NCBI GenBank assembly: GCA_000727475.1
Contig: KL647297.1
Location: 953,280 to 1,017,279 of the forward strand
Source of the DNA: Sarcocystis neurona
Taxonomy: Eukaryota; Apicomplexa; Conoidasida; Eucoccidiorida; Sarcocystidae
Length of the DNA stretch: 64,000 bases
Direction: 5' to 3'
Shown here: in pieces, positions 697 to 37,839 of the stretch
Layout of the letters: the number at the start of each line of letters is the position of its first letter
Numbering within the stretch: position 1 is the stretch's first letter
Position numbers and translations under genes: made by a program
The notes under the pieces: generated by a model
Databases searched by the model: none
Told to the model about the DNA's origin: nothing
Seen by the model: the letters and a program-made list of their open reading frames with translations, nothing else

Positions 697-1303
697 TCAT
701 ATAGAGTTAGGTATATTTGTATACCTGGTGAACGCCTTGCGAGAAGCCATGCCGTCGAGGAGCCAAGGATGAAGCAGCAGCTCGGCAGCAGCGCCTCTCT
801 TGCTAGGATGGACGCGCAGGCAGCAGAAGAGGAAGTCCCGAAACGTGTACGAAAAGTTGCTGCTGCTGCTGCTGAGCTGCTGCTGCAGCTGCTGCACCAC
901 GTCTTCGTCTCGCAACCCGCAGGGCAGTCCTTCAGGGAAAGGATGACGCAGAGCAGCAAGTTCCGCGAGGACAATACCTGCGCTCCATATATCTGAGGAA
1001 ACTGCCTGCATCCCTTTCCGCCTTCTGCTGCTGCTCCACTGCCGGTCCTCCCACTCCTCTGCTGCGTCGCATCCCGCGCAGCACCAGCAGCAGCACTCCG
1101 ACGCCCTGTCTCCGTCTCTTCCCGGTGACACTCTCTTCCTGCGACTACTACTGCTGCTACCACTGCTGCTGTTACTGCTGCTGCTGCTGTTACTGTTACT
1201 CCCACTGTTACTGCTGCTGTTGTTGTTACTGCTGCTGCTGCTGTTGCTGTTGCTGTTACTGCTGCTGCTGCCGTTGTTGCTGTTCCCGTTACTGCTGCTG
1301 TTA

Positions 1304-1334
<31 letters not shown>

Positions 1335-3861
1335 CGCTGCTGTTGCTGCTACTGCCGTTGCTGCTGCTGCTGGCGGTCGCGCCGCTGCTGTCGCCGATAT
1401 ATCTGGGCTTCGAAGTTTTGCTAGCGCCCTCAGGCCTACCGCAGCATCTTCCGGCTGACTCTTCCTGCGCCTGCAGTAGAAGCAAGCTTCTGCTGCCTTG
1501 GCCGGTGGCGCAGCAACTTTCCCTGTTGTTTTTGCTGCTGTTCGCGCTGTTACTGGTAGGTTTTCTTTTGGTGCTGCTGCCTGCGTTGCCCCTGCCATTC
1601 CTCCACCCTTCGAACCCGCTGTCGTCCTCGCTCCTGCTTCTTTCATCTCTGCTGTTGGTCCTGCCTCTGTTGTCTCTCGTATTTTTGCGGCTGCTGCTGC
1701 TCTGGCTACCCTTGCAGCAGCTCGTTCCTCCTCTCTTGCTCCTGCTGCTCCTGCCGTCTCTGCTGCCGCCGCTGCTCTTGCCCTCTCTGCTGTTGCTGCT
1801 GCTGCTCTTGCCCCCTCTTCTGCTGCTGATGCTCTTGCCATCTCTGTTGCTGTTGTCGTTACATTCTCTGCTGTTGCTGTTTCTCCTTTGATGAAGAATA
1901 GTGCCGCTAGAATTTCGTCTTCTGCCTCGTTCTTCCTTCGTTAATTTCTCGCCTTCTTCTACTCCGTCGGTAGCAGAAACAGCCCCTGCTGCTCCCAACA
2001 GCAGGGAAGACTGCCGTATTGCGTCTATCCCTGTCCACGCAGTTGTTTTTCCTGCTGCTGCCACTGCTGTGCTTGCTGGCGCGACTGCTTCGGGTGCTGC
2101 TGTTGCTGTTGCGTCAGGTACCTGGGGTTGTGCTGCTGCTGCAGTGGCCGCTGCGGCCGCCGCTGCTGCGACAGGCGAGCAGCACTCCACTGCTGCTGCT
2201 GCTGCCTCTGCTATGACTGCCGCTGCTGCTGCAAATCCTGCGGTACCTCCTTGACTCTTTGTTGCTGGCGCTATCGCCGCTGCCGGAGCGCCGGCTGCTG
2301 CGGCTCCTCCTGATCCTGCTGGTCCTGCTTCAGAAACGCCAGCTGCTGTTGCTGCTGCCCCTCTCGCACACGCAGCAGTCGTGCCCGTGCCACCAGGAGC
2401 AGCAGCAGTCATTCCGGCAGCAGAACGAGCAGCTGGCTGCAAGACAGCAAAAGCAGCAGCAGCCTCTTTCTTAACAGCACCAGCTGCAGCACATGTCCGT
2501 GCAGCAGCAGCAGCCGAATTAGCTACTTTCTTCCACCCAGCAGCAGCAGCTACCTCTACGGCAGCACGAAGAGCAGCTATGTTTCCTGTGGCAGCAGCGG
2601 TAGGAGAAGCAGGAGCAGCTTGACGTGTGCCAGTAGCAGCAGCAGCGCGTGTCTGGAAGGCAGCGGCAGCAGGAGGTCCGCTAGCAGTGGCAGCAGCTCT
2701 TTCAGTCGCAGCAACAGCAGCACTAGCGCCACGTTCGGGAGCAGCAGTTGCAGCAGCTTGTCGACCAAGGAAAATTGCAGCCTCTGCAGCAGCAGCAGCG
2801 ACAATAGGTGTGTGCGTTCCTCTGAAGTTGACTGACATTCCTGTGAAAGAATGTCTTTTCCTGGTGGAGAAGTTGCTGGTGGTGTTTTTTTTTGAAGTGG
2901 CAAGCAGTAGCTCCCTGAACTTGCCGCTGTTTCTTTCAACAAACGCCGACCAGCCTCTGACACTTCTCCCGCAGCAGCCAGACCGCTGCTGCCAGCAGCA
3001 GCAGGAGGAAAACAGGCGACAGCTGCAGCAGCAGCATCACCAAGAGAAGACAAAGAAGAAAAAGAAGCCGCAACAGCTGCAGGAGCAGCAGCAGGGGAAC
3101 TATCGTCAGGCATAGCAGCAGCAGCAGGTTGAACCGTCGCCCTAGGAGCAGCAGACGAAGGAGGAGGAGGCGGACAGCCAGCAGCGATTTCAAGTGCGCT
3201 AGGGTGGTGATAGCAGCTGGACGCTTGCGCTGTAGACATGCGCTGGCACGCGTCTGCTGCCCCATTGCTGCTATTCCTCCGTCTCTTCCCTTCGTCGCTG
3301 AGGCTGCTGCTTAAATTTCTCCATCTGCTGCTGCTGCTTCGCGTGCTAAAACTGTTGCTGTGGCTGCTGCTGTCATTGTTGCCGGAGCCACTACTGCTAT
3401 TGCCATAATGTTTGGTGTCCTCGCCAATCCTGTTGCTGCTATCAGCCTTGCTGCTGCTCTTCGCACTGCTGCTGTTGCCGCGCCTGGTGCCGTCGCCTCT
3501 GTCCCACGTGCTGTTGTTACTGGTGCTGCTGCTGGGATTGCTGCTGCCGGAATTGCTGCTGCTGGGATTGCTGTTCCTGTGATTGCTGCTGCTGGGATTG
3601 CTGCTCCTGTGATTGCTGTTGCTGCTGCTGCTGTTGCTGCTGCTGTTGCTGCTGCTGTTGCTGCTGCTGTTGCTGTTCCTGCAGGCGCTGCTGCTGCAGC
3701 CGCTGCTGCGGCAGCCGCTGTTGCTGCAGCCGCTGTTGCTGCTGCTGTTTCTGCTCCTGGTGGTGGAGAGGGAGGGGAGGAACGAGACGCAGCCGCGGGA
3801 GGGGCGACGCGACGAAGCGCGGGGACGTGGGGCGATGAACGAATGCAATCGTTCCGGACTC
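697..3861 (-). CDS. Kinase exon 6: SPERL, giant insert, C-lobe
   Basis: Acceptor GGTGCAG; the exon begins with G completing Met and then SPERLHSF. An Ala/Ser/Asn-rich insert of about 950 residues follows. The frame then resumes kinase sequence with [21 protein letters not shown] (Asp codon 993-991) and ends with subdomain [19 protein letters not shown] and a short tail to the stop at 699-697. The Ala-coding frame changes by one base between about 2895 and 2838, across nine consecutive T (2885-2893). With that base restored, the total coding length is divisible by three. Confidence 0.78.
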
Positions 3862-6800
3862 CTGCACCGAGTCACGCAGGCCCACGTTGTCCCGCTACAA
3901 AAGAAATATGTTAATTTTTACCTTCAAAAGCTACACATCTATTTGTTACACTTTTTAGCTTCATCAAAAGAGCCCAGGTTTACAAATATACATATATATA
4001 TATATGTGTGTAGATCTGGCTCGTGACTATCACCCCTTCACCTCGCTACAGAGAAACACGTATATACACACCGACTCAACACCTATGTACCCATACACAT
4101 CTGCACATACATCCACACATATATATATATATATATATTAACTCACTGCCTGACCATTTGCTTGATACAAATACATACGTATATATGTTTATATTGAGTA
4201 GCTATCGACTCACTCTCCTAAGAGAGGACAAATAAAGTGTTAGATACGTATAGATATATATGTGTGCGTATATATATGTGTGTGCGTCTATATATACCCT
4301 TACGTATGTCAGCACGTATATATATGGATGTGTATATATTTGTTTAACTTGTCCCACACAGGTGAACATATACGTCCACATCAATATATGGGCGTCAGCA
4401 AATAAAAACTTCCCCTCCCTCACATATGGGTGTACGTACGTGCGTCTCGCCAATATATATACCCATGTATACAGACGTATATAGACGTGTATACGGACAG
4501 ACATATATATACGGGCCCGTGTGTGGAAGTACGTATATAAATATATGTGTGTATATTAATGACTCTCTTCATATACACATATATACGTGCATAGACGTGG
4601 GTACACGAATATGTGTGTATATGTGCATACATAGGCATTTCTCCATATATACACATATATACGTATATGTTCATATGTACACACATATACACTTCTGTAT
4701 TAGTACAGTTATATACATATGTGTGAATATACATACATATAGAGCTACATATATATATATATATATTGAAGCACACATACATATATATGACTACTATGTA
4801 TACGGATATATGTATGCAGAAATATATATATATATATACATATTGAAACACACATACATACATATGACTACTATATATACAGATATATGTATGTAGGAAT
4901 ACATATGTACATATATATATATTGAAGCAGACATACATAGATATGACTACTATATATATAGGTGTATGTATGTATTAAAGAAGTAATAAGTAAGCGTATA
5001 TATTTCAGTAGAAGAGCAGCCCGTGTGTATGAATATGTCTACTTTGCTACGCAGCAGCCTTTCTCTCTCTATGAAGGAAAGTGAACAGGAGGGCAGTGCG
5101 TATCAACACATACATATATATGTAGAACTGCGCCTTAATAGATGTGCAAGCGCAACAGCACGTCTATAGATGTACGTATTATGCGTATATATATTCGTGG
5201 GGAATATAAAGGAATGAATACAGAGGAAAAGGAGAGAACGTCTACGCATTCGTGGGATGTACACCTCTCCTCCACATGCATAGAGGAAGGCAGATAAATA
5301 GGCAGAAATATATACTTTTCTACGCCACAGGCATACATACACGTATACACATGTGTGGACTGTTGCTTCTGTGCGTATATATATGCCCATGCGTTGGTAC
5401 GTAGGCGTCAAGCTACACACACACACATATATACACATATATACATATATATATATATATATGTACGGCTATGCAAACACGTGTGTATGGGCAGGTACGT
5501 ATGTACACACGTATCTACACATGTGTGTGAGTATATATGCAGCGACACGTACACACCTGTGCTCGTGCGTATTTGTGTGCCTCTATAGAAGTGTTTGAGC
5601 CTGTAGATACATATATATATATATGTACATATATATATATATATGTGTACGTGGATGAAATATGTGTAACGTGACTATAAATATACGTATCTGTCGTGTA
5701 ATAATAGAGAGACAGAGGGACACGGAGAGAGAGAGAGAGACGACGGAGAGACGAAGTCACTTATATTGCTTACATACGTAAAACTAGTAGTAGTAGTAGT
5801 AGTAGTATAGGAGTAGTAGTATAGTAATAGTACTAGTAGTAGTAGTATAGGAGTAGTAGTATAGTAGTAGGAGTAGTAGTAGTAGTATAGGAGTAGTAGT
5901 ATAGTAGTAGGAGTAGTAGTATAGTAGTAGGAGTAGTAGTATAGTAGTAGGAGTAGTAGTATAGTAGTAGTACCAGCACTAGCAGTAGTAGTAGTAGTAA
6001 TAGTAGTAGTAGTAATAGTACAAGTATAGGAGTAGTAGTATAGTAGTAGTAGTGGTACTCCCGTAGTAGTAGTAGTAATAGTGAAAGACTGTGAGAAGGA
6101 GGAATATATGAGAAGGGGGAGAAGAAGTTGCAGGGAAGAGGGGAAGTGCTGGAGGGACGTGAAGCTGCTGCTGAGGGTGTGCCCCCGTGTTGTGGGCGTT
6201 TACGAATTTGTCCTCCTGCGGCTGTTCTTCGATTTCTTCTGCTGCGCGGCCCCCCTGCTGCGTGGCCCCCCCTGCTGCGTGGCCCCCCCTGCTGCGTGGC
6301 CTCCCCTGCTGCGTGGCCCCCCCTGCTGCGCGGTCCCCCCTGCTGCGCGGTCCCCCCTGCTGCGCGGTCCCCCCTGCTGCGCGCTTCCTCTCCGCGGGTC
6401 TCCACGACAAATTTGTGGTCGTCGCGCTTACATGTAGAGGGCCGTCCCAACAAATGTGAGCGACTCCTTTTTCGAAGGACGGCGACGAGCGAGGAAACGA
6501 CTTATGCCGAAGTCGCCGATTTTCACCACCCCTGCAAGTCCAACAACCCCACCCCACCCCCCACCACCGTCTCAACAAGTCCCAACACGATAAATTATGC
6601 CTTCAATATAAGGATATTTCGGCGTATATCAAGAGAAACACGCTGATATATGCATGCATGCGTATACATATACATATATAGACATATGTGTGGATTGTAT
6701 ATACCAGCAGATGTATAGTAATACAAGACATACATATATATATGTATGTCCATACCCTACTTATAATATACCTGTACATATATATATATATAGGTGTATT

Positions 6801-9800: not shown

Positions 9801-10244
9801 GCGGCAGACCGTCCGGTAGTCAACGTATATAAATATGCATAAATATATAATATAAATGAATATGTGTGTGCGCTTCCATAAAGTGAGACAGAAAAGGACA
9901 CAAGTGCACAAGAAGACGTAAATAGAGAACTCGTGGATACGGAAAGACACACCTACATAGAGATACACATATATATAGACGTCTATTTATAGATGGATTT
10001 ATATACATGCACACATATATATATTTTTGTATACGTATCTATATATATATACATGTACCTAAAGAGAGACAAAGAGAAATAGAAACACACACACACACAC
10101 ATGTGTAGACTGATGTGTGAACACGTATATACAGAGACAGATATATCTACATATATACGTGTCTATTTACATATTTATATAGAGAGAGATACACAGAGAG
10201 AGACGCACATACAAAAATATAATGAGAGAGGTTTAGGCAGAGAT

Positions 10245-10282
<38 letters not shown>

Positions 10283-19200: not shown

Positions 19201-22200
19201 NNNNNNNNNNNNNNNNNNNNNNNNNNNNNNNNNNNNNNNNNNNNNNNNNNNNNNNNNNNNNNNNNNNNNNNNNNNNNNNNNNNNNNNNNNNNNNNNNNNN
19301 NNNNNNNNNNNNNNNNNNNNNNNNNNNNNNNNNNNNGTCCTGCCGTTGATGTTGCCGTTCCTGCTGTTGCTGTTCAAGCAATGAATTTAAGTGCTGCTAC
19401 TGCAGCTGCAGTCGTAGAGGAAAGTACCTTGAGCTCTGCAGCAAGCTGGTAGCGGTTGGCCTTGATAACTTCGTCCAAATGATGAGCAACGTCGAAGCAG
19501 CCCACTTGGACTTCCTGCAACGTGCATGCAAAAATGGAGCAGCACCAGCAGCGGTAGCATCAGCAGCAGTAGCGGCAGCAGCGGCCACAGCAGCAGCAGC
19601 AACAGCAACAGAAGATGTAGTCTATCTTCTCTGTGTGTGCGTGTATGTGTATGTGTGTCCCGCTACAAACATGTATATATACATGTAGGACTGTAGGCGT
19701 TCATATCAATATCAGCGCGAGAGAAGAAAAGAAAAAAAAACCTCTCCCAAGTAAAACGGGAAACGAACACACACACAGACACACACACACACACACACTC
19801 ACACACAGAGACAAACATGTAAGAGTACATATACGTGCACGTATACTTGCGTGCTGCTCAGTAATAGTCACATACACATAGGCATGCATATATACGTATA
19901 CACATCTGGAGAGAGAGAGAGAGAGCTGCATATTTGTGGGTTTCTCTGCGTCTGTCTTTGCCCGTTGGTGTAGATTTGCTTGCATGTATATCGAGACACA
20001 TATATGTCTCTCCCAAGTGGGGAAGCTTCACATGTATAAACACATATTTTCATGTATTTCTGCTCGTTACAGCCAGAGAAATCTGCGTGTATATATATAC
20101 ACACATGTTACTGCTCCTCACAAATACCTCACACATACCCTCACATATATATATGTACTTCCGCTCGTCACACACCTATCTATATACGCGTACATATATA
20201 TGTTCCTCGCAAATAGAGAACCGCTACATATATGTATTTCCGTCTGAATTTCGAAGGCGGACACCGCCCTACTCGTCCCCCCCCCCCTACAGACACGCAC
20301 AGTCTGACGCTCTTCCTCCTCGTCGTCTCTGCTGCCCCGCTGTCCCCGTCTCCGTCTCGCGATGCGTCCGCCGTCGCGTCTCCCTCTCTGTGCGCGTGTG
20401 TGCGTGTGTGCGGGAGAAGCACGCAGCAGAATTCCTTCGTCAGCCAAAACAGCATTTCTTTGACGATCGACTTCGACACGTCTTGCTGTTTTCTGTTGGG
20501 CGCCACATTCGTTCGTCGATATTAGCTCCGCCCCCCCCCACAAACGAGTAGATATTCACCTGCTGCTGCATGGACCTACGCATGCATATCTCTTCACATA
20601 CACGTGTATCTCTGCCTCGCGTATATATATGGATATGCAAGCCGACCGGTGGTCTGCGCCTACACGTGCAGTTATATACATGTATACACAAATACATATA
20701 TATGCAGATGAATGGACGCGCTACACGTGCAGTGTGCGCATATATCTATATATGTACAGAGAGAGAGACATATTTTTCACTTGTAGGTCGATGTATGCGT
20801 GCTGATTTTCGTAGACGAAAAGGACTCGATGAAGTGTTGAAGCGACAAATAATGTGGCACTCTCGTCTGGCGTAGGCTTCTCTCAGAACTTGTTGATATT
20901 CAACGCGTCACACCTGCGTCACGGCTGTGCTGCTCCTGCTGCTCTCTCTACGAACTCCTACAATTTCATCCGGAAGTCCCTTTGCAAGTCGTCTCAAGTA
21001 TATACATACATACAAGCTTATATATGTATATATATACATACGTATCTACATGTGTATATACATAGATATACATACAGGCTTGTATGCATATATGTATGTA
21101 TTAATGTATATATATATATGTATATATATACATATGCATCCTCGACCATATATATACGTATATATATACATACACATATACATACACGCTTATATATAGA
21201 CATATACATATATTTGTATATCTACATGTATTAATGTATAAATAATATACATTTATACGTACATATATGTGTATATTTGATTGCGTCCATACATGTACGT
21301 ATATGTGCCTCTCTGCATAGACGTGTAACAGAGACAGGGCGACACAGGGAGAGACGGGGAGACCCACTTTGACGGCGAGTACTACTCCGGAAGTTTTATG
21401 TGTAGCAGCGTAGACGACGGCACTGCGGCCTCTCCCAACGAGGCGACTTTTTCCCCAGCAAAAGTCGCTTCGTTGCATACGGACAAATTCTTCTTTGCTG
21501 TCACTGCTGCTGTTGCTGCTGCTTCTTCTTGCTGCAGCCAGAGCTGCTACTGCCCTCTCCCACGTCTTAATTGCTGCTGCTGCTGCGCCGCATCCGGCCT
21601 CTGCCCCTGCTGCTGCTCTTCGTGGCGCTTCGATTGCCGCAGCTGCTGACGCCGCTGCTGCTGTGCTTCTGCTCCCTGCTGCAGCCTCAATCGCTGTCGC
21701 ATAATCTGCTGCTCCTGTCCTTGCTTCAGCTGCTGCTGCTGCTGCTGGGAGCGCTTCTGCTGGGGTTACTGGTGGTAGTAGCGCTTCAGCTGTTCCTGCA
21801 GCTGCTAGCCCTTCTGCTGCTGCTCCTGCTGATGGGTGCGCTTTTGCCGCTGCTGCTGCTGGTAGCGCTTCTGCTGCTGCTTCTACTGCTAGCACTTCTG
21901 TTACTGTGACGGCTGTAGCGCTTGTTGCTGCTGCAGTAGCTGCTCTACCCCTCTTGCAGGCGGTGGGGGCTACTGGTGTTTGCATGGTATGGCAGCATCC
22001 AGTTCGTTGAAGTATCAGCTCCTTGTCACAGAGTACAAGGTTCTTCTCTCTCTGCTGCTGCTGCTGTTCTTGATCTTGCCGCTCTTCCTTGTCCTGCTGC
22101 TGTTGCTGATTCTGCTGTTGCTGTTCCTGACTCTGCTGCGTTCGGTTCTGTTGCTGCTGTCGGTGGTGCTGTTGTCGCTTCTCGTGTTGCTGCTGTTGCT

Positions 22201-25200
22201 GCTGCGTCTGCTGTTGCTGCCGCGTCTGCTGTAACTCCTGCGACTGCTGCATCTGCTGTGACTGCTGCGTCTGCTGTTGCTGCTCTGTTTGCTGTTGCAG
22301 CTGCGTTTGCTGATGCTGCTGCGTCTGCTGTTGCTGTTTCTCAGTCTGCTGCAAGACGAGGAAAGTTTCTGCTTTTGCCTCGCTGCATATACTCCACGGG
22401 GCACTCGAGAGTCTCGACGAAGCTGCCGTGCCGCTGCACGTCACCAACCGAAATATACTGCTGCTCCTTGTCTCTTCCAGCTGCTGCTCCTCCTGCTGCT
22501 GTTGCCGCTGCCCCTTCTGCTGTTGCTGCTGCTCCTTCTGCTGTTGCTGCTGCCCCTGTTGCTGCTCCTGCTGCTGCAGCTGCTGCTCCTCCTGCTGTTG
22601 CTGCTGTTCCTTCTGCTGTCGCTCCGCCTCCATGTCCTCCTGTTGGGAGTGCTGTCTACGCCGTTGGCACTTTTTCTCCTGCTGCTGGTGCTTCTCCTCC
22701 CCGTTCGGCTGCTGCTTCTCCGTATGCTGCTGCATTCCCTGCTGTTGCTGCTCCAGAGCCAACGGCCCTTTGCTCAGGTCCTCCTGCTGCCGCTCCAACT
22801 GTCTCTGCCTCTGCTGCTGCAGCAACTCCTGCTGCTGCTGTTGCCCCACATACATCACAGCACTGCTGTGAACGGTTCCACTTCTCGCTGAAGATCCGCA
22901 AGACATAAAAGGGGGGAGGACTGGCTGCTCTCGCGGTATCGTCGCAGCATAAAAAGACCGCCTCTCTGCAGCTCTCCCCAATGCTGCTGTTGCTGCTCGT
23001 GCCGCTGCTTGTGCTGCTGCTTTTGCTACTGCTAGGTCTTTTGCTGCTTCTCCTGTTGCTGCCGTTCCTGTTGCTGCTGCTGTCTCTGTTCCTGCTGTTG
23101 CTGCTGGTGGTGTTGCCGCTGCAGGTTCCGGGAACTGCTGTATGTGGACGCTGAAATTTCGAGCCGCTTCAGCAGCAGAAGGCTGTCCGAAGGTTTTTTG
23201 CGTAGCAGCTGCAATACGAGCATGTCTGTCTTTCCTTTGTGCCGCTGGTAGACCAGCACTCCCGCGTGTGGTTGCTGTAGAGATCTTTTCTTTTGCTGCT
23301 GCTCCTGCTGCTGCTAGCACTGCGGCGGCCCAGTGTCTACACATCGTTGCCTCTTCTGCTGTTGCTGACGCAGAAGGAAACACAGAGGCTCCAGCTGCTG
23401 CTGTTGCTGCAGTCACCGGTTGCCCATCTCCTTCTACCGTCCCTACTGCAGCAAGATTCTCAAGCTCTGCTGCTGCTGCAGCCGTGGGGCGGAGGCACAC
23501 GTCTGCTGTATCTGTCTCATGAAAGCGAAGTTGTGGGGTGGTGTGGGGAAGTTCGAGTGTCTCGCGAGACACTCGGGAGGGGCGTTCTTCTGCTGTCTTG
23601 GTGCCACGGGAGCTTCCCGTCTTCTTTTTCTCGGCGTCCGATAGAGGAAAACACGAAGAAGAAGAAAATGCAGAGGACACACCAAGAAGAGAATAAGAAG
23701 AAAAACCACTTGGAGAAGGCAAAGAAGATAAAGAACGAAAACAGGCTGGGGGGGAAGTCGACACTTCGGAAGAAGAAGACCTAGCAAGAGGACTAGCAGG
23801 AGGAAGGCAAGGAACTGCAGCAGCTGCTGTTGGAGGACCACTTCTAGAAGGAAGGAACCCGCAGGAGTTCGTGCAGGGAGAAAACGAAGAAAAAACACAC
23901 ATCGAAGAAGAAGAAGTTGAGGGAAACAGAGAGAGGACGGTTTCGTGGGGAGAAGGAGACAGCGGGATCTTTGCAGCAGCAGCAGCAGCACTTGTGGACT
24001 GCGGTTGACTTGAAAATGCTCCTACGGCTGCTGTGGCAGAAGTGCGTCCTGCTGCAGCATTGAAAGAAGGAGCTCCTGCTGCAGCAGCTGCAGCAAAGAA
24101 AGGACAAGATGGTTGAGCAACAGATCCCTGAGAGTGCAGCGCTGTAGCAGAAGAGTGGCTTTTGTCTGGAGCAGAAAAAGCCCAGCAATTTCTACTATGC
24201 ACGCCTGCAGGACATGCTGCCGCCGCGTGCAAATTACTTGCTGCAGCAGGTGGCTCAGCAGCGGCGGCAGTGGACGACTGTGTGGGGTTTGCCGCTGCAG
24301 CAGGAAACGACGGCTGCAACATTTCTGCTGCAGGCGGCCGAGTAAGTGGAGCCGCAGGACCCGAGTAGCCGAAGGCACGTACGTCAGAACACCTCGCACT
24401 AGCAGCAACAGCACCTGGAAGGGACACCGCAGCAGCAGCAGCAGTAGGGAAGTGCGTTGTCTGCGTCGTTTTCTCAGACCGTCGAGTATCGGCAAGGGAA
24501 AGAGGAGAAACAGGAGGGACGACATTTGCTGCTGCTGCTGCTGCAGAAGGAGGAGAGCGATGGGGAGAGAGAGAAGCTGGGCTTGCTGCAGCCGAGAGGG
24601 AAACGACTGCTGCAGCAGCAGCATTGCGTCGCAGCAACGCGACGGATGAATGCCGCCGCCCCGAGGAAGGGGAAACTGCAAGACGGGTTGCTTCTCGGTG
24701 AGGAATTGCTGCTGCTTCTGTCGTACGTAGTGGAAGAAAAGCCGCTGGAGGAACTGCTCCGGGCGAAGACGGGGCTGCTGCCGCTGCTGCTGCCGAGAGA
24801 GAGACTGCTGCTGCAGGAGTGCTGCAGCGTTTAGCAGGGGACTTTGTTGCTGCTGCTTCATGAAGAATTGAAAGCGAAGCTGCGAGAGAGGGAGAGGGCG
24901 CTGGGTTGGATACATTCGTAGGGGAAGAGCCTGTTGGAGTGACCGGGAAAGCAGCAGCTGTCTGCTGGGCAGGGAAAGAAGCAGCAGCGAGATGTGCAGC
25001 AGCAAAGTCTCTCCGCCAAGGTGTGGGGTCGAGCGTGCAGCTTCCTGCTCCCCCACACGACACGTTTCCTTCGTCAGCAGGTAAAACGTCCGAGAGAGAA
25101 GAACGAGAAGCAGCAGCAACATCTTTTGATGCGGCTCCCGCTACTGGGCTGGCTGCTGCTGCTGCTGAGGTAGGCGCGACAAATGGGGTATCTGCTGCTG

Positions 25201-28200
25201 CAGAAGAAGAAGCAGCCGCAGCAGCATGCCGGGCGGGTGGAGGAGGAAAAGCAGCAGACGCAGGATAGCGTTCCGCCCCGCACGATAGAAAACGCGGCCG
25301 TCCTGTTGCTGTGGCTGCATCTCCGCTTGCTGCTGCTGCTGCGGTCGCAGCTGCCAGAGCATCTCGACCGCTTGTTCCGCACAACTTTGCTTCCTCACCT
25401 GCTGCTCGACGGACAACACATCCAGTGCAGGCAGAAGAAGAAGCTGCTGCCCGAGTAGCTGCTCCTGCTCCAGCAGAAGAACAGGGAAAACGAAAAGAAG
25501 GAGGAGAGGGCGAAGATGCATGAGCAGGAGGAGAAGGACGGCCGTGTGGTAGATGAGAACTAAGTCGTGGCGGTAGTGCTGCTGCCTCGGGAAAAGGACA
25601 CATGGAGGCTGCTGCGTCAGAGTTCGTGGAGTCTGCCCCAGAAGAGGAAACATATTTTTTCTTGTAAAACGCCTGAGCTGCCGAAGAAGGAGACTTTTTG
25701 CTTCCTGTGGCCGACTGATACTCTTCCGCAGCAGCAAAACTTCCCAGAAGGCCTGGCACTACACAAGTACTCCGCCGAGACGCTCCTCTCCCTCTCTTCG
25801 GAGACCCTGCTGCACTGCTACACGAAGGGAGAACAGGAGCAGCAGCGGAGCCCGACGCGGCAGCAGCAGCAGCAGCAGGACGATATGAAGAAGCAGCGTC
25901 TTCTCTAGGCAGACGTAGAACAGCAAGAGGGGGAGGAGTATCTGCTGCTGCGGTAGCAGCAAGATAGAAAGGAGCTGCAGAAGGACACGCAGCTGATGAT
26001 ACTTTTTCTCCTGCAGCAAAAGCGTGTGAGCGTGGCTTCCTGGGAGGTGGCAAGAGCTGTGCTGCAGCAGCAACACTGCGACGACTGGCGCTAGCTGCTT
26101 GCTTCTCTTTTAACGCTGATGCAAACACGGGAGAGAGGGCGTCTGCTGCTGCTGTGCTGGCTTGGGGGACGACTACTCCTGCTGCCGGGTCTTCGCAGAC
26201 TTCTGCTGCTGGACCTGTTTCACACGCTGCTGCAGACGAAGAAAGAGACGCTGCTGCTCTAACGACGGACGCTGCTCTAACGAAGGCTGCTTCTGTTCTA
26301 GCGACGTGTGCTGCTGCTCTGACGACGGGTGCTGCTGTTGCTGCTGCTCTTGCTGCTGCTCTTGCTGCTGCTGCCTTCTCGGGAAGTGGTGAAGTTTCTG
26401 CAACAGGAAAATGTTCAGCGGTTCCGAGCGACAGAGAGGCACCGGCTGTATGACTCGAAGAAGAAGAAGAAGAAAAAGAAGACGTCTTCTCTTTTAAACG
26501 CATGCAATCTGCTGCTGGTGTGGGGCTCATGTGACCACATGAAGGAGCTGCTGCGTCGCCGACTTCCTTGGCGTTTGGTTCAAAGCGGGATGCAGACGTG
26601 AAGCATGGGCGTGTTGCAGCAGCAGCCGCAGCAGCTAAAGGAGAGCGGGGATGGGCAGTGCCAGTAGACGTGGCACCCCTAGACGCAGCACAAGGAACTG
26701 CTGCTGCTGTTGTTGTCGTAGCAGGGATGTACACACCACGCGCAACGGTCGCAGCAGTTTCGGCGAGAAGAGGAAGAGAAGGACAAGCAGAAAGACAAAG
26801 AGGAGAAGAAGATGGAGAAGAAGGAGGTGGTGCAGAAGTCGCAGCAGCAGAAAGGAGAGGACTAACAGCAGTCTGGGTAGCAACAGCAGCAGCAGAGGAC
26901 GTGTACGGTGTCGTAACAGCAGCAGCGTTTGTGGGGTCTGCTGCAGCAGCAGGGGGGGGAGAGGGCGAAGAGCAGAGAGACAAGACTGCAGCATCAGCTG
27001 GCTGCCTGGCGCACTGCAGCATGCCACCAAAAGCTTCAGCGGCAAAGCGATAGGCAGCTTTCTTGAAGGAGTCGTGCGGTAGAGAAACGCACGCAGGCAG
27101 CAACAAAGAGGCTGCTGCAGCAGCAGATGCAGAACCCGCTGCAGCAGCCCGTGCAGGACGAAGGCGACGCGATCGACGGAGCAGGAAGTGTTGCGCGTCA
27201 GCAGCAGAAGAACCACCGCTGCTCCTCTTTGCAGCACTTGCTGCTGCAGAGTAACTGCTGCCGCAGGACGAGGAACAGAAAGAGGAGGAGGAGTTGACAC
27301 AGGCTTCTCTAGTGCTGCTAGAACGGCTGCGTCGCTCAACAGCAGTTCGCGTATAGCAGCTACCTGTAGAGGCACCTGCAGGAGCATGGCTAGCCGTACA
27401 CTCCGCAGCCTGCTGGTTGGCAGGACGCTGGTATGCCGCTTCAGTTGGCACCTGGCTAGCTGCTGAAGATTCGTGTATACATGCGCCTGCAGGAAATCGC
27501 CGTCCCGCTGCAGGGGAGTGGCCGTCTGTGTCTGTGGCGTCTTCAGCAGGCCGTTGACGAGCTGAGCCCGTCGTATTGATGTCCTCGGACTGCCCAGCTC
27601 TGCAAGTGAGAGGAGAAGAAGAAACGGAAGAGGAAGTCGGAGGATCGAGAGCTGCGGAGAACGTTGGAGCGTCTGGCTCAGAGGCAGCAGCAGCAGCAGG
27701 GAAGGGCGATACGAGTGCTCCTGCTGCTGCTGTCATTTCTTGGCCTTCCTCGTCGCCACCAAGCCGAGAAGGACATTCCTCGTCCACACGGAGAACAGCA
27801 GCAGCAGCGGCATCGTTCGTCTGCGCTACGTCTCCCCGGCAGCTGCGGCTTTTAGAACAGCAGCAGTCTCTTTCCGCAGCAGCTGTGCGAAGAGGAGGAG
27901 GAGCAGGAGCAGCAGCAGCAGCAGCAGAGCCGACGTCTGTACTCGCAGGAGCAGCAACAGGACCCGAGGCAGCTGCAAGACTTTCGCGTGCAGCAGCACA
28001 AGAGGCGACGGATTCCCTCGCAGCCGAGGAGGTGTCACAGGCTTCTGCACCTCCACACAAAGCAGCAGCTTCGTAGACGGCAGCAGTGTCAAAATAAGTG
28101 CCAGAGGCAACCACGTTGAAGGCAGCAGCAGAAACAGGAGCTTCACACACTGCAGAGGCAACAGCAGCAGTAAGTGACCCAGGAAAGGCTCCTTGCTGCG

Positions 28201-31042
28201 TTCCCGCGCTTTCCTGTACGTTGAGTGTGCATGTCCCCGGCTCCGGCGATGCTGCAGCGAAGCTTCTTGAAAAAGCTCGAACAGAAAAAGAGGAACATTT
28301 AAAAGGAGTTACACCAGCAGACGAATCATCTGCTGCTGTCCTGGCGGGAGGCGTTTGCTTGTCTTTCTCTGTCCAGTGCCCCGATGGGGTCCTTCGCCGC
28401 CCCTGCTGCTCCTTTCCCTGCTGCTGCTCCCTCGCATCCCGTTGGTGCTTCTGCTGATGCTGTTGCTGCCTTCCCTCCTCCGGCTGCAGCTCCCACACCT
28501 CCCGTTGCTGCTGCTGCTGCCGTTGCTGCGTTTTTTCCTGTTGCTGCAACTCCCACACCTCGTGTCGCAGCTGCTGCTGCTGTTGCTGCGCTCCCTTCTC
28601 CTCCCGCTGCTGTGCTTCTTCGTGCTGCTGGTGGGTGTGACAGGGCATTCTTTCCTTTGCAGGAAACTGCTGCATGTGATGCTGCCGCCAGGGCTGTTGG
28701 TGGTTTTCCACGAACAGCTGCATCCGCGGCGAGGCAGCACGCCCCAGGGCAGAGAGCTGTCCCTGCTGCGGAGCTGCTGCGTCATCTGTGGGACATTCTT
28801 TGCCGTCTGTTGCTGTAGAGAAATGGCGGGACGAGGAAGAGAAACACTGCAGGGCTGAGAGAAGCCGATGGGGGACAAATTGCGCCAAAGATATACAGGA
28901 GTCGTCGTCGTGTGCGGTTGTGGAAGAAGCGTTGTTTCTGTTTTTATTCTCCCACGTGCAAGGCCTCCGAGATGCCTCGCTTTCTTCAACTTTGTCGTAA
29001 TCTGCAACAACGCCGCCTTCCTCATCTGCCGCTACTGCTGCTGTTCCTGCTGCTGCGCGTTGAACTGACGCTGCTGCTCTCCGTGGCTCCACTGAAACGG
29101 CTCTCCCTGTTACTGTTGCTGCTGCCGCCGATGCAGGACGTGGCGAGGACATAGCAGCAGACATGCATCCTACTCGTACCGCTGCTCCTGCTGCTGCTGC
29201 TTCTTCTTTTTCGCAGAGAGGAAGGGCAGCACGAGAGCAGTTTTTGTAGCAGGAGAGCGAGGCATGTGGGTGGCAGAAGGAGTCTGGCCCGTGCTTGCTA
29301 CTGCAAATCGCAACATCTCTTTTGCTGCTGCTGCAGGTGCTCACAGCAGTGCTTTCAAGACGTTCTCTCTCTTCTGTCTTTGGCGGTGGTGCACCTGCTG
29401 CTTCCCCAGCAGTTGCCAAGAAACTAGGTATGTCGTGTGAAGTGCTGCTCGACCTATCGCTAACGGAAAGGAAAGGAGTGGACGGCTGAGCAGCAGCGCG
29501 AGCACGAAAGGTAAAATTGTCGCGGGCGGAGAGCACGACGTCGTGCTGCTGGGGCTGCAGCAGGCGCATGCGAGCAGTCGCCTTCGCAAGAGAAGTTTGC
29601 TGTTCTGTAGAGACGCTAGCCGATCTGTGGCCGAGACCTACAGACACAGGAGAGAGAACGCTACTGCTGCTGCCGTTGTTGCTGCTGTTGCTGCTGCTGT
29701 TGCTGCTGCTGCTGTTCCCGTCGCAGCAGTCAGTCTCAACACCCTGCCTTCGACGACAGAGAGGGTCGAAGCAGCAACAATCAATATATACGCCGCTGTC
29801 ATTTTGACTACTATGTTGGTGGTGACTACTGCTGCTACAAGTACAGCTGGCTGCCTGGGCAACAACACAAGTAGCGCTGCTGTTCCTGCTACCTTGGGAC
29901 CCGCTGGTGCGAGGAAAGCCGTAAAACACCGTGTCCCGATGCCTGCTGCTGCCCTCCTCTTCCTTCTTCGATCCCGCCCTGCCGCTTCTATCGCTGCCCA
30001 AGTCTTCCCCACTGCCCCTTATGAGGCAGCTGTTGCCGCATGCCGGAGGGCTGTGGTGTGTGGTAAACTCGCCTCCCCTGCTGGATCTTTTCCTGCTCGT
30101 CGACGTGCCCCTTCGCGGCATACCACTTTTTCTGCTGCCCTTCGAGGAGTTCCTGCTGCTGGAATTGCTGCCGTTGCTGTTTCTGGGCTGCTGCATGCTG
30201 CTGCTTCTGTCAGCGCTGCACCCGCAAGGCTCGCGAGGGTCGCTGGGCTGGTGCCTGCAGCTGGTGCAGGGGTGCCGACTTTCACTGCTGCTGCAGCCGG
30301 TAAAAGTAGGCCTTTCAGCGAGTGTGCTGCTGCTACGTGGCTCGCACCCAATGTTGAGAGAGCTGCTTCGGCGATTGGCAAGGCTGCTGCAGCTGACACA
30401 GCTACAGAGCGGTACGCCGTCCTTTCCACCGCTGTCTGTATTGCCTAAAATGTGCCCACTTCTGTTGCTGGTAGTAGGCCGTTGTATGTTGTCGTCTCTG
30501 CTACAACGTGGATCGATCCTGCAGCAGAAGTTTTGGCTGCCGCTGCTCCTACAGGGCTGCTGCGAGTCATTGTCGATCCTCTCCGTAGAAACAGCAATAA
30601 AGCATTGCTTTTCACTGCTGATGCTGCTGCTGCTGTTGTTGTTGTCGCCCAGTTGTGATGGACCAGGTCTACTATTGCTGCTTTTGATGCCGACGCTGTA
30701 CGGACTTTCGCTGCTGCTCTTGCTGCTGGTGGTGGTGTAGAACGGAGGGCTCTCTGCGGGAGTTGTTGGGACAAGGAAGGCAGGAGAGGCATCGGAGTGA
30801 AACGTCCGTTCTTCGTCATAATTGAGGTGGGAAGGCAGGCAAGGCGAGTCTCTACCGAGACTTCTTGCTAAACTCAGTGAATTTCCAAGCGAAGGAGCAG
30901 CCGGAGAAGGAGAAGTACAAGATAAAGACGATAATGGGAAAGAGCTCGTGCTTGTGCGAAAGTCTTCGCTGGTAAAGTGACTGCAGCTGCTGGTAGTCGC
31001 TAGACGAGAAGCGATTAGCGGCGGCGGGCGAGGCCGACTCAT
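697..31042 (-). CDS. Giant STE/MAP2K-like Ser/Thr protein kinase, six exons
   Basis: Predicted kinase of about 5,072 residues, transferring phosphate from ATP to Ser/Thr; substrate unknown. Six exons join with matching phases (0,0,0,1,2). Residues 1-3200 are low-complexity (poly-Ser, Ala, Gln). The glycine loop GRGRSAVVY starts near residue 3203, followed by the ATP Lys in VLAVK (3225). Next come the alpha-C Glu in AAELK (3252), gatekeeper Thr in [11 protein letters not shown] (3298), HRDIKPQN (Asp 3973), KIGDFG (Asp 3991), [21 protein letters not shown] (Asp near 4975) and the C-terminal Arg in [17 protein letters not shown]. Large inserts separate alpha-D from alpha-E and SPERL from [24 protein letters not shown] and SDIWS.G resemble MAP2K/STE7 kinases, while [10 protein letters not shown] is also typical of NEKs, so the group is uncertain. 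The start is the first ATG of the long open frame. One frame slip at 2885-2893 is needed. Confidence 0.8.
1147..1372 (-). repeat. CTG/TTG/TTA triplet tract inside kinase exon 6
   Basis: Near-continuous CTG, TTG and TTA triplets on the given strand; on the sense strand they read as a Ser/Asn-rich run (AGC, AAC, AGT). It belongs to the insert between SPERL and DIWS. Confidence 0.8.
2885..2893 (-). other. T9 homopolymer with apparent 1-base frame slip
   Basis: Nine T on the given strand (nine A in the kinase sense strand). Upstream the sense reading is Ala/Ser/Pro-rich in one frame; downstream the Ala-rich frame leading to DIWSAG is offset by one base, as if one base were missing. A sequencing error in the homopolymer is the simplest cause; a real polymorphism or programmed slippage is possible. 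Confidence 0.55.
4766..4980. repeat. About 78-bp minisatellite, three copies
   Basis: Copies begin at about 4766, 4843 and 4922 (spacing 77 and 79). Each starts TTGAAGCACACATAC or a close variant and contains ATGACTACTAT. It lies in kinase intron 5. Confidence 0.75.
5784..6085. repeat. AGT-triplet tract with ATAGG interruptions
   Basis: About 300 bases of AGT repeats broken by ATAGGAGT, ATAGTAGTAGG and similar units. It lies in kinase intron 5. Its translations (poly-Tyr/Thr/Leu) are not credible proteins. Confidence 0.9.
6241..6375. repeat. 17-bp C-rich minisatellite, eight copies
   Basis: Eight units of GCTGCGTGGCCCCCCCT or variants (CGCGGT, CTCCCC forms), mostly 17 bases. On the kinase sense strand each unit carries a run of about six or seven G. 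The array begins about 55 bases downstream of the exon 5 donor (GT at 6431-6430) within intron 5. Confidence 0.85.
6432..6531 (-). CDS. Kinase exon 5: DFG motif and activation segment
   Basis: A 100-base exon with acceptor CTTGCAG and donor GTAAGC. It encodes [18 protein letters not shown] and then [15 protein letters not shown] plus AT. The metal-binding Asp codon is 6514-6512. The Thr just before FVGT occupies the place of the second activating Ser/Thr of MAP2K enzymes; a Ser lies two residues earlier. The final AT joins G of exon 6 to make Met of YMSPERL. Confidence 0.9.
7466..7596. repeat. TATG tetranucleotide microsatellite
   Basis: About 130 bases of TATG with regularly placed TATATG interruptions, in kinase intron 4. 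Confidence 0.9.
8106..8167. repeat. Perfect 31-bp tandem duplication
   Basis: Two identical head-to-tail copies (8106-8136 and 8137-8167) beginning CAGCTATATATAGGTAGG. The lack of differences suggests a recent event. Confidence 0.85.
10718..10802 (-). CDS. Kinase exon 4: catalytic loop
   Basis: An 85-base exon with acceptor GCTGCTGCAG and donor GTAACA. It encodes [20 protein letters not shown] and then QNIFISSD plus one base. The catalytic Asp codon is 10754-10752. Its leftover G joins GG of exon 5 to make the Gly of [12 protein letters not shown]. Confidence 0.88.
10803..13099 (-). other. Kinase intron 3 with reversed CAG block
   Basis: 2,297 bases between IAFQ and LLDGL. From about 10805 to 12060 the given strand carries CAG/GCA/AGC repeats, so the kinase sense strand reads CTG, the opposite of exon 3. 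Then comes a non-repetitive island (about 12080-12720) and a TATA microsatellite block (about 12790-13090). Plus-strand open frames in the CAG part look protein-like (11161-11667, 168 codons) but have no independent support. Confidence 0.6.
12269..12412. promoter_or_regulatory. Paired 14-bp palindromes GGTGTACGTACACC
   Basis: The perfect palindrome occurs at 12269-12282 and again at 12399-12412, with a partial site (CACGTACACC) at about 12333-12342. They lie in the non-repetitive island of kinase intron 3. A role as protein-binding sites is an inference from symmetry and repetition only. Confidence 0.3.
13100..15205 (-). CDS. Kinase exon 3: hinge, giant insert, start of alpha-E
   Basis: A 2,106-base, 702-codon exon, phase 0 at both ends. 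The acceptor is TTTTACCCAG and the donor GTGTGAG. It opens with beta-4 and beta-5 ([14 protein letters not shown], then [20 protein letters not shown]), with Thr in the gatekeeper place. An insert of roughly 600 residues rich in Gln, Ser and Ala follows. The exon closes with [13 protein letters not shown], the start of alpha-E, which joins LLDGLAFLH of exon 4. The insert therefore sits in the loop between alpha-D and alpha-E. Confidence 0.78.
15206..19427 (-). other. Kinase intron 2 with CAG/CTG blocks and assembly gap
   Basis: 4,222 bases including 566 N. CTG-oriented triplets (given strand) fill 15300-15720 and 17990-18770, and CAG-oriented triplets 16130-16620. Simple repeats lie at 16950-17260 and 17580-17870. 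The exon 3 frame stays open upstream to 16942 as a Gln/Lys/Glu-rich reading, so a longer exon 3 or an alternative exon cannot be excluded; joining exon 2 to the acceptor at 15205 gives a normal alpha-C to beta-4 connection. Confidence 0.55.
18771..19336. other. Assembly gap (566 N)
   Basis: A run of N flanked on both sides by CTG-type triplet sequence, so the gap is probably an unresolved triplet tract. It lies in kinase intron 2. Confidence 0.95.
19428..19514 (-). CDS. Kinase exon 2: alpha-C helix
   Basis: An 87-base, 29-codon exon. The acceptor is TTGCAG and the donor GTACTT. It reads [16 protein letters not shown] and ends in YQLAAELK, giving AVK-EVQV at the junction with exon 1, which is a natural beta-3 continuation. 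The Glu of AAELK (19436-19434) is the expected alpha-C salt-bridge residue. Both ends are phase 0. Confidence 0.8.
19515..21367 (-). other. Kinase intron 1
   Basis: 1,853 bases between AVK and EVQV. It contains a GCA/CAG patch (19545-19615), CACA repeats (19770-19810), an island at about 20220-20560 and another at about 20790-21000, and TATA repeats (21000-21260). A 66-base phase-0 mini-exon at 20914-20979 is possible but would break the AVKEV reading. Confidence 0.6.
21368..31042 (-). CDS. Kinase exon 1: low-complexity N-terminus and ATP-binding loop
   Basis: A 9,675-base exon of 3,225 codons, open throughout. The ATG at 31042-31040 has a purine at -3; the same frame stays open a little further upstream but only with non-ATG starts. 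It contains Ser-rich, Ala-rich and Gln-rich stretches; the densest Gln run is about 22030-22850 (residues about 2730-3005). The last 25 residues are kinase subdomains I and II, ending in AVK (Lys codon 21370-21368). The donor is GTGGGT immediately after that Lys. No recognisable globular domain is visible before the kinase start. Confidence 0.8.
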
Positions 31043-31460
31043 TGCGGACAGGAGGCAAAAAAGAAGACGCCTCACGGGCCGTGGGTGGGTCAGAGGGGAA
31101 AGAATCGGGAGACAAGGGAACAGGAGAAAAAGGTGGGAATCGATAAGAAGAACGCGTTAGTCTACGTTGGTGGAGTGGAGGAGAGGGGGACGGCGAAGCA
31201 AAATTACATCAAGAAAAAAATGACAGCAGTACGCACACATATCCAAGAAGTGGGAAACCAGGCGGGCGGGATCGGTGATCCCGAGCGTATAGGATGAGGG
31301 AAAAGAAGAAAAGCAATCAAATAAATGAAGCGTAAGACACAGGAGGATATGGATAAAGGAAGGGAACGGGAAAAGGTCAACAACAGAAAGGGGAGAGGAG
31401 GGCAAGGGAGGTCCAGGACGGTAGTTCAACTGTGTTTGAAAACGTTGGAAGGTCTAAATA
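31043..31460. other. Region upstream of the kinase start
   Basis: About 400 bases of non-repetitive, purine-rich sequence between the kinase ATG and the repeat-poor segment. It should hold the kinase 5' UTR and promoter. I see no clear promoter element. Confidence 0.4.
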
Positions 31461-37767: not shown

Positions 37768-37839
37768 GGTTCTATGGTGTAGTGGTTAGCACTGCGGATT
37801 CTGATTCCGCCAACCTGGGTTCGACTCCCAGTAGGACCT
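37768..37839 (+). tRNA. tRNA-Gln, anticodon CTG (CUG)
   Basis: A 72-base cloverleaf. Acceptor arm GGTTCTA pairs with TAGGACC (one G-T pair), with discriminator T at 37839. The anticodon stem GCGGA/TCCGC encloses loop TTCTGAT, giving anticodon CTG at 37801-37803, which reads CAG. The T arm is CTGGG/CCCAG. The internal pol III promoter is intact: A box TGGTGTAGTGG at 37775-37785 and B box GGTTCGACTCC at 37818-37828. No intron and no encoded CCA, as expected for a nuclear eukaryotic tRNA. Overall it closely resembles eukaryotic tRNA-Gln(CUG). It decodes the codon most expanded in the flanking genes. Confidence 0.97.

What the first reader, a model, noticed from the sequence alone, without database searches (positions are those of the whole stretch)
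697..31042. A ~5,000-residue STE/MAP2K-like kinase whose catalytic domain is dispersed over 20 kb
All catalytic hallmarks (glycine loop, VLAVK Lys, alpha-C Glu, HRD Asp, DFG Asp, SPE, DIWS) fall in six exons whose phases all match. Two low-complexity inserts, about 600 residues between alpha-D and alpha-E and about 950 residues between SPERL and DIWS, swell a ~260-residue domain to about 1,870. Kinase inserts of this size that leave every motif intact are very unusual. MAP2K-like features are notable because classical MAP2Ks are sparse in apicomplexans.
Basis: partly seen in the sequence, partly recalled or inferred. Interest (0 to 1): 0.8.

Follow-up and report, generated by a model that had tools for sequence, protein, structure and literature searches.

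The report
Hidden MAP kinase kinase in coccidia
The gene encodes a very large signalling enzyme related to the kinases that switch on MAP kinases; its catalytic part is split by three huge inserts, relatives with the same three inserts exist in Toxoplasma and its kin, and a 2022 review says such parasites have no enzyme of this type.

Summary
Five coccidian orthologues (Toxoplasma, Neospora, Hammondia, Besnoitia, Cystoisospora; 2,039-2,555 aa) share its N-terminus and a core 59-60% identical.

Two corrections. (1) Junction 19428/15205 is probably wrong: exon 3 most likely starts at 16879, adding a third insert (about 558 residues, alphaC-beta4) that all five orthologues also have. All six proteins carry inserts at the same three places. 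(2) "Exon 6" (3861-697) is not one frame: SPERL and DIWS lie in different, overlapping frames, so an assembly length error, a frameshift or a short unplaced intron must lie between.

Trees put the coccidian clade with MAP2Ks, near ciliate ones; placement with NEK is only weakly rejected (p-AU 0.04; 0.06 without long rows). Catalytic residues are complete in 6 of 6, although databases call three of the proteins "incomplete catalytic triad" and a 2022 review says Apicomplexa encode no MAP2K. An N-terminal docking-like motif suggests it activates a MAPK; my guess is MAPKL1 (TDY motif, no known activator). Activity and target are inferred, not shown.

The parts
21368..31042 (-). Exon 1: N-terminal low-complexity region (3,191 residues) and start of the kinase domain
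   Evidence: Open frame of 3,351 codons (21101-31156); start matches orthologues; donor AAA|gtgggt
31010..31042 (-). N-terminal docking-like motif [11 protein letters not shown]
   Evidence: R-x-R-P-P-P-L-x-[A/M] at residue 3 or 4 in 6 of 6; coordinates
27014..27070 (-). Conserved motif [19 protein letters not shown] in the N-terminal region
   Evidence: Compare AFKKASYRLSAVALDGVQL of the orthologues; coordinates
21368..21469 (-). Kinase start: glycine loop GRGRSAVV and AVK lysine
19428..19514 (-). Exon 2: most of alphaC with the glutamate (QLAAELK)
   Evidence: gcag|GAAGTC ... CTCAAG|gtactt; aligned without gap
13100..16879 (-). Exon 3 (corrected start): end of alphaC, insert 1, beta4 to alphaD, insert 2, start of alphaE
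   Evidence: Acceptor ctggtttgcttttctttgcag before 16879, best of 123 sites; ORF 13094-16945 open
15158..16831 (-).
   Evidence: Orthologues have 346-448 residues here
13136..15004 (-). Insert 2 (alphaD-alphaE), 623 residues
   Evidence: Orthologues have 196-371 residues here
10718..10802 (-). Exon 4: alphaE and catalytic loop HRDIKPQN
6432..6531 (-). Exon 5: DFGIS, activation loop, FVGTALYM
697..3861 (-).
   Evidence: 10 stops if read as one piece; ORFs 2577-3917 and 697-3036
1009..3842 (-). Insert 3 (between SPERLH and DIWS), about 945 codons if unspliced; length uncertain
   Evidence: Orthologues have 255-599 residues here; coordinates
2577..3036 (-). Overlap of the SPERL and DIWS frames: frame conflict
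   Evidence: frame measure switches near 2900-2840; nine-A run 2893-2885
724..1008 (-). C-lobe QAVSSDIWS ... [16 protein letters not shown]
   Evidence: Pfam 4.6e-11; 57% identical to Neospora over 1023-721

Best explanation
This is a catalytically complete, MAP2K-side (STE7-like) protein kinase of a coccidian, probably Eimeria-like, orthologous to one gene in Toxoplasma, Neospora, Hammondia, Besnoitia and Cystoisospora. An ordinary kinase core of about 305 residues carries three long low-complexity inserts at the same three places in all six: alphaC-beta4, alphaD-alphaE, and between SPERL and DIWS. SHOWN by sequence: motifs, orthology, shared insert sites, best tree place on the MAP2K side. 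INFERRED: the inserts loop out at surface turns so that the core folds as usual; the N-terminal R-x-R-P-P-P-L motif docks on a MAP kinase; the kinase phosphorylates the activation loop of that MAP kinase; the inserts serve regulation or anchoring. Most likely target, as a guess (about 0.27): MAPKL1, whose TDY motif fits a dual-specificity activator and which has no known upstream kinase. The confidence below is for the shown part, that is, an active-type MAP2K-side kinase with three inserts.
For: Five orthologues (E 2e-87 or better), core identity 177-181 of 299-302 columns. Catalytic Lys, Glu, HRD Asp, DFG Asp in 6 of 6. Profile of five cores against solved structures: MAP2Ks first (dSOR1 5e-38, MEK1 8.5e-38), NEK7 3.6e-36, STE20-type about 2e-30; best 60 of 2,749 listed. 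Tree of 54 rows: coccidia (100/100) on the MAP2K side of a 100/98 branch, next to ciliate kinases; 100/97 with 48 rows. MAP2K letters in 7 and NEK letters in 0 of 12 separating columns. N-terminal motif in 6 of 6. MAPKL1: TDY (PMC12172689), no known activator (PMC9560070).
Against: Coccidia with NEK is rejected only at p-AU 0.0415 and not at 0.05 in the reduced set (0.0563); a MAP2K group without coccidia is not rejected (0.217). NEK7 is close behind MEK1. The motif lacks the last I/L of the strict docking consensus: strict matches at the N-terminus 0 of 6. Only the second of the two activation-loop sites is conserved in all six (by eye). No transcript, no activity, no structure was available. 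The frame conflict leaves the window's own gene unproven as one open frame. Four of the 17 rows in my MAP2K set bore no MAP2K name in the listing and two had names cut off.
Confidence: 0.74

Rival explanations
1. A NEK-like or unclassified STE-side kinase that resembles MAP2Ks in part; it does not act on MAP kinases as a MAP2K does.
For: NEK7 scores close to MEK1; AU test rejects the NEK placement only weakly (0.0415 and 0.0563). In Plasmodium NEK kinases have been proposed to do the MAP2K job (PMC9560070).
Against: Branch 100/98 and 100/97 for the MAP2K side; 0 of 12 NEK letters at separating columns; the genome has a clear NEK1-like kinase elsewhere whose best solved relative is NEK1 at 5.5e-49.
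Confidence: 0.13
2. The insert stretches, or the longest of them, are artefacts of the gene model: introns or repeats that are spliced out, so the kinase is nearly normal in size.
For: No transcript evidence was available. The codon measure disagreed with the exon-3 frame in 29 of 62 windows and with the SPERL and DIWS frames in parts of 3861-697. The frame conflict in insert 3 would fit an intron.
Against: Five published orthologue models have inserts at the same three places with conserved edges. Exon 3 is open for 1,260 codons at GC 0.585-0.588; the gene's introns are 1,853-4,186 bases at GC 0.375-0.54 with 12-34% dinucleotide-type repeat, against 0.4-1.2% in the insert-bearing stretches. 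No good donor inside 3861-697 and no good acceptor just before DIWS.
Confidence: 0.07
3. A pseudokinase or a decaying gene: databases call relatives 'incomplete catalytic triad' and the window's copy has a frame break.
For: Names of P0246, P0248 and P0249; frame conflict at 3036-2577.
Against: Lys, Glu, HRD Asp and DFG Asp present in 6 of 6; the C-lobe after the conflict is still 57% identical to Neospora and open to its stop, so any break would be recent; a nine-A run lies at the place, where an assembly length error is plausible.
Confidence: 0.06

Closest known systems
Coccidian orthologues: Toxoplasma P0248, Neospora P0247, Hammondia P0249, Besnoitia BESB_045180 (P0245), Cystoisospora P0246
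   Same: N-terminal motif, FKKA motif, kinase core (59-60% identity), all catalytic residues, three insert sites
   Different: Half the length (2,039-2,555 aa against about 5,630 codons of exon here); inserts shorter in each place
MAP2K (STE7) family: MEK1/2, MKK5, MKK6, dSOR1
   Same: Best solved relatives; FVGTxxYMSPER segment; tree side
   Different: No inserts of this kind in the solved ones aligned; N-lobe aligns poorly; first activation-loop site not shared by all six; target untested
Ciliate kinases P0006 (Blepharisma, named MAPKK) and P0013 (Paramecium), and P0005 (organism not named)
   Same: Nearest rows outside coccidia in the 54-row tree, with the Amoebophrya kinase P0162
   Different: Compact domains of 251-266 aligned residues without the inserts
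Apicomplexan kinases with large insertions: R45 FIKK, several Plasmodium kinases, PfPK4/cgd1_890
   Same: Large low-complexity insertions inside the domain (PMC526369; PMC3227725; passages)
   Different: Other kinase families; the reported insertion or domain sizes (570; 659 for the whole domain) are below the totals here
Sarcocystis neurona SRCN_5172, STE kinase of 6,552 aa, kinase span 3410-4122
   Same: Giant coccidian STE kinase with a stretched domain (PMC5371900, table passage)
   Different: Classed MST-like there; its sequence was not seen, so its relation to this gene is open

Membership tests
MAP2K (STE7) | Groups with MAP2Ks in a kinase tree | tested here: met
   100/98 and 100/97 for the MAP2K side; caution: NEK placement p-AU 0.0415 and 0.0563
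MAP2K (STE7) | Complete catalytic residues (VAIK Lys, alphaC Glu, HRD Asp, DFG Asp) | tested here: met
   6 of 6
MAP2K (STE7) | FVGTxxYMSPER segment (motif taken from the MAP2K rows) | tested here: met
   [13 protein letters not shown] here, FVGTELYMSPERL in 5 of 5; most MAP2K rows shown agree, not every one
MAP2K (STE7) | Two phosphorylatable residues in the activation loop (spacing recalled: S-x3-S/T in animals, S/T-x5-S/T in plants) | tested here: inconclusive
   Thr before FVGT in 6 of 6; the window has S-x5-T, the other five have no Ser or Thr at either first position (read by eye)
MAP2K (STE7) | N-terminal MAPK-docking motif [K/R]-x-[K/R]-x2-4-[I/L]-x-[I/L] (PMC9560070) | tested here: inconclusive
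   Met except for the last residue (A or M) in 6 of 6; strict form 0 of 6 at that place
MAP2K (STE7) | Dual-specificity phosphorylation of a MAPK activation loop | not testable with these tools
   Needs an assay
MAP2K (STE7) | Acts below a MAP3K | not tested
   A survey found no STE11 in the apicomplexan genomes it covered (PMC3239843); not searched here
NEK | Groups with NEK kinases; NEK letters at columns that separate the two sets | tested here: not met
   NEK set is its own clade (99/89) without coccidia; 0 of 12 letters
Pseudokinase ('incomplete catalytic triad') | Loss of catalytic Lys, HRD Asp or DFG Asp | tested here: not met
   All present in 6 of 6

The most novel reading that the evidence does not exclude
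Coccidia kept a true MAP2K that surveys largely missed because three giant inserts split its domain. It is the missing activator of MAPKL1 (TDY), so a two-tier MAPK module without a MAP3K acts on centrosome duplication and budding, with the inserts taking over regulation. The pair MAP2K plus MAPKL1 would have been kept in coccidia, Cryptosporidium and chromerids and lost together in Plasmodium.
Probability: 0.27. Interest if true: 0.85.

Novelty: new variant of a known kind. Interest (0 to 1): 0.62.

Why it matters
A 2022 review states that apicomplexans lack the STE family and encode no MAP2K or MAP3K, which leaves the activators of MAPKL1 and MAPK2 unknown (PMC9560070, passages and one section). 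Here a MAP2K-side kinase with complete catalytic residues is seen in six coccidian sequences. MAPKL1 is a target of bumped kinase inhibitors (PMC12172689, abstract and passages). If the link holds, a gap in parasite cell-cycle signalling becomes testable with one knockdown. It also shows how inserts can hide a conserved enzyme and mislabel it. Credit to earlier work: Talevich et al. 2011 reported STE7 instances in N. caninum, C. hominis and C. parvum and unclassified STEs in T. gondii GT1 and ME49, E. tenella and Cryptosporidium (PMC3239843, passages); whether these are the same genes was not checked. UniRef already names the Neospora protein 'mitogen-activated protein kinase kinase', and its names for the Besnoitia and Cystoisospora proteins, cut off in the listing, begin alike.

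Tried and rejected
Only the third, 3,520-aa query reached the orthologues: 5 of 18 proteins that passed. No Eimeria protein was named in the three listings; that is weak evidence of absence, because candidates are limited by length (about 197-628, 558-1776 and 1936-6160 aa) and by shared words.

Reading exon 2 on past 19428: rejected (score -11.8 against 16.2). Acceptor at 16787: rejected (-19.6). By sequence match alone, without the acceptor condition, 16879 is not outstanding: third in the gap at 16 codons, seventh at 12, eighth at 8, as listed, with better matches elsewhere on the strand.

Codon measure as proof that inserts are coding: rejected. It mainly follows which frame reads alanine, agrees with the exon-3 frame in 33 of 62 windows from 16900 to 13240, and in 3861-697 it prefers a third frame before 3320 and a frame other than that of DIWS between 1940 and 1100. 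I use it only as weak evidence on where the frames switch.

Intron inside 3861-697: best donor-like site AATGTCAGT at 2836, no acceptor with a good pyrimidine tract just before DIWS. A short intron was not excluded.

Pfam on the whole exon-1 frame found nothing. No structure was predicted: the joined core is not letter for letter in the window, and the orthologues exceed 1,200 aa. Literature: eight searches of the paper library. Their listings showed no title naming this kinase as an activator of MAPKL1 or describing its inserts; apart from the passages cited and one section of PMC9560070 the papers were not read.

Full report
WHERE IT IS. The window is C10:953280-1017279 of a 123-Mb, 74-contig genome without a name. 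Long Ala, Gln and Ser runs from CAG-type repeats fit Eimeria, whose coding regions carry CAG repeats (PMC8785600, passage). In the tree the window's kinase stands outside the five other coccidia (96/60 for those five), which fits an Eimeria-like coccidian. The species is not established.

CHECK OF THE OBSERVATION. Pfam sees the kinase only in pieces: N-lobe 0.0013 (under its cut-off), middle 9.6e-24, C-lobe 4.6e-11. It is more than chance: five coccidian proteins align to the joined pieces at 59-60% identity over 299-302 columns, without gaps at the joints 21368/19514, 13100/10802, 10718/6531 and 6432/3861.

FIRST CORRECTION. The orthologues continue alphaC as [A/T/I]HR[L/M]IS[Y/C]C... and then carry an insert of 346-448 residues before beta4. 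A strong acceptor, ctggtttgcttttctttgcag, opens at 16879 in phase 0 on [16 protein letters not shown], to be compared with THRLISCCSDVAALSF of Neospora. The match alone, without the acceptor condition, would not have been convincing. The frame is open from 16945 to 13094. So exon 3 is most likely 16879-13100, and the domain has three inserts: 558, 623 and about 945 codons.

SECOND CORRECTION. 3861-697 is not one frame. MSPERL sits in ORF 3917-2577, DIWS in ORF 3036-697, and joining them as written gives 10 stops. The orthologues also carry a stretch of 255-599 residues between SPERLH and DIWS, so an insert here is likely real, but its length in this species is uncertain. The codon measure switches from the SPERL to the DIWS frame near 2900-2840, where a run of nine A lies at 2893-2885; this measure is weak and disagrees with the open frames elsewhere (see Tried and rejected). 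The gene's five introns are 1,853-4,186 bases with GC 0.375-0.54 and 12-34% dinucleotide-type repeat; 3861-697 has GC 0.585 and 0.4%. An assembly length error or a real frameshift is therefore likelier than an ordinary intron; a short intron is not excluded.

WHAT IT IS. A profile of five coccidian cores finds MAP2Ks first among solved structures (dSOR1 5e-38, MEK1 8.5e-38), then NEK7 (3.6e-36; one chain with a cut-off double name 5.9e-37), then STE20-type kinases (about 2e-30); the best 60 of 2,749 were listed. In a tree of 54 kinases over 247 columns the coccidian clade (100/100) lies on the MAP2K side of a 100/98 branch, next to P0005 and an Amoebophrya kinase (95/76) and ciliate kinases (98/91). 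Without six long rows the branch is 100/97. Against this reading: forcing coccidia with NEK costs 27.0 log units, p-AU 0.0415, and 18.95 units, p 0.0563, in the reduced set; with STE20, p 0.0153; a MAP2K group that excludes coccidia is not rejected, p 0.217. Of 12 columns that separate my MAP2K and NEK sets, coccidia carry the MAP2K letter in 7 and the NEK letter in none. The reference rows were picked from my own search hits: 17 MAP2K (11 so named in the listing, 2 names cut off, 4 placed there by me: P0013, P0075, P0083, P0138), 15 NEK and 7 STE20 (all so named), 2 STE11, 7 other. It is not a balanced sample.

CATALYTIC STATE. Public names for the Toxoplasma, Hammondia and Cystoisospora proteins say 'incomplete catalytic triad'. 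Lys, Glu, HRD Asp and DFG Asp are present in 6 of 6. The likeliest cause of the label is that the inserts split the domain for automatic models (inference).

HOW IT LIKELY WORKS. The inserts sit at alphaC-beta4, alphaD-alphaE and between SPERL and DIWS, places at the surface of a kinase fold, so the core can fold as usual (inference from general kinase anatomy; no structure was made). The protein begins with R-x-R-P-P-P-L-x-[A/M] at residue 3 or 4 in 6 of 6, although the rest of the N-terminal region differs greatly in length; the same relaxed pattern occurs 1-4 times per protein in all. It resembles the docking consensus [K/R]-x-[K/R]-x2-4-[I/L]-x-[I/L] (PMC9560070) except at the last place. 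MEK1 has its docking site at its extreme N-terminus too (recalled). MAPKL1 has a TDY motif (PMC12172689), sits at the centrosome, has no known interacting partner or activator, and is listed as missing in Plasmodium and Gregarina but present in Toxoplasma, Cryptosporidium and a chromerid (PMC9560070). STE7 instances were reported in N. caninum, C. hominis and C. parvum (PMC3239843), Plasmodium is said to have no MAP2K orthologue (PMC8960227, passage), and chromerids appear to have MAP2Ks. The patterns match in outline, but this comes from papers; I did not search those genomes. Only one of the two usual MAP2K activation-loop sites is conserved in all six (by eye), so control by a MAP3K may be reduced; no STE11 was found in the apicomplexan genomes of the 2011 survey.

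COPY NUMBER. With the core as query, 7 of 29 matches in the window's genome are pieces of this locus (61-100% identity). The other 22 are 30-49% identical; the strongest of them, on C20, scores 78.6 bits at 41%, more than several short pieces of the locus itself, and its best solved relative is NEK1 (5.5e-49). So no second copy was seen.

NOVELTY. The family exists in databases, UniRef already calls the Neospora protein a MAP kinase kinase, and STE7 was reported in N. caninum in 2011, so this is not a new family. What is new here, as far as the eight paper searches show, is a catalytically complete MAP2K-side kinase kept across coccidia with three shared giant inserts, against a review that says there is none. 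Large inserts alone have precedents.

Noticed in passing
window 37768-37839 (+): tRNA-Gln with anticodon CTG, which reads CAG, the codon whose repeats fill this genome's coding regions.
   Followed up: no
window 55378-59610 (-): Open frame of 1,410 codons with a Glyoxalase-type Pfam match (5e-05, above its cut-off) at residues 838-903.
   Followed up: no
G000:C20:2122474-2123097 (L001, L011): A NEK1-like kinase inside an open frame of 3,721 codons in the same genome: other kinases here are also giant.
   Followed up: partly
window 27070-27014 and orthologues P0245-P0249: A conserved stretch, FKKASYRLSAVALDGVQL in the orthologues, lies alone in the otherwise low-complexity N-terminal region; function unknown.
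   Followed up: no
insert 1 of P0245, P0247, P0248, P0249: Conserved TP-rich pieces (PLTPSTM, LL[T/P]PTP) inside the alphaC-beta4 insert, possible proline-directed phosphorylation sites; read by eye.
   Followed up: no
MAPKL1 of Toxoplasma, Neospora and Sarcocystis (literature): The guessed target is itself reported to have three additional segments in its kinase region (PMC12172689, passage).
   Followed up: no
P0005 (354 aa, organism not named): A compact MAP2K-like kinase without inserts, among the nearest relatives outside coccidia (36% identity; trees); it may show the form before the inserts.
   Followed up: partly
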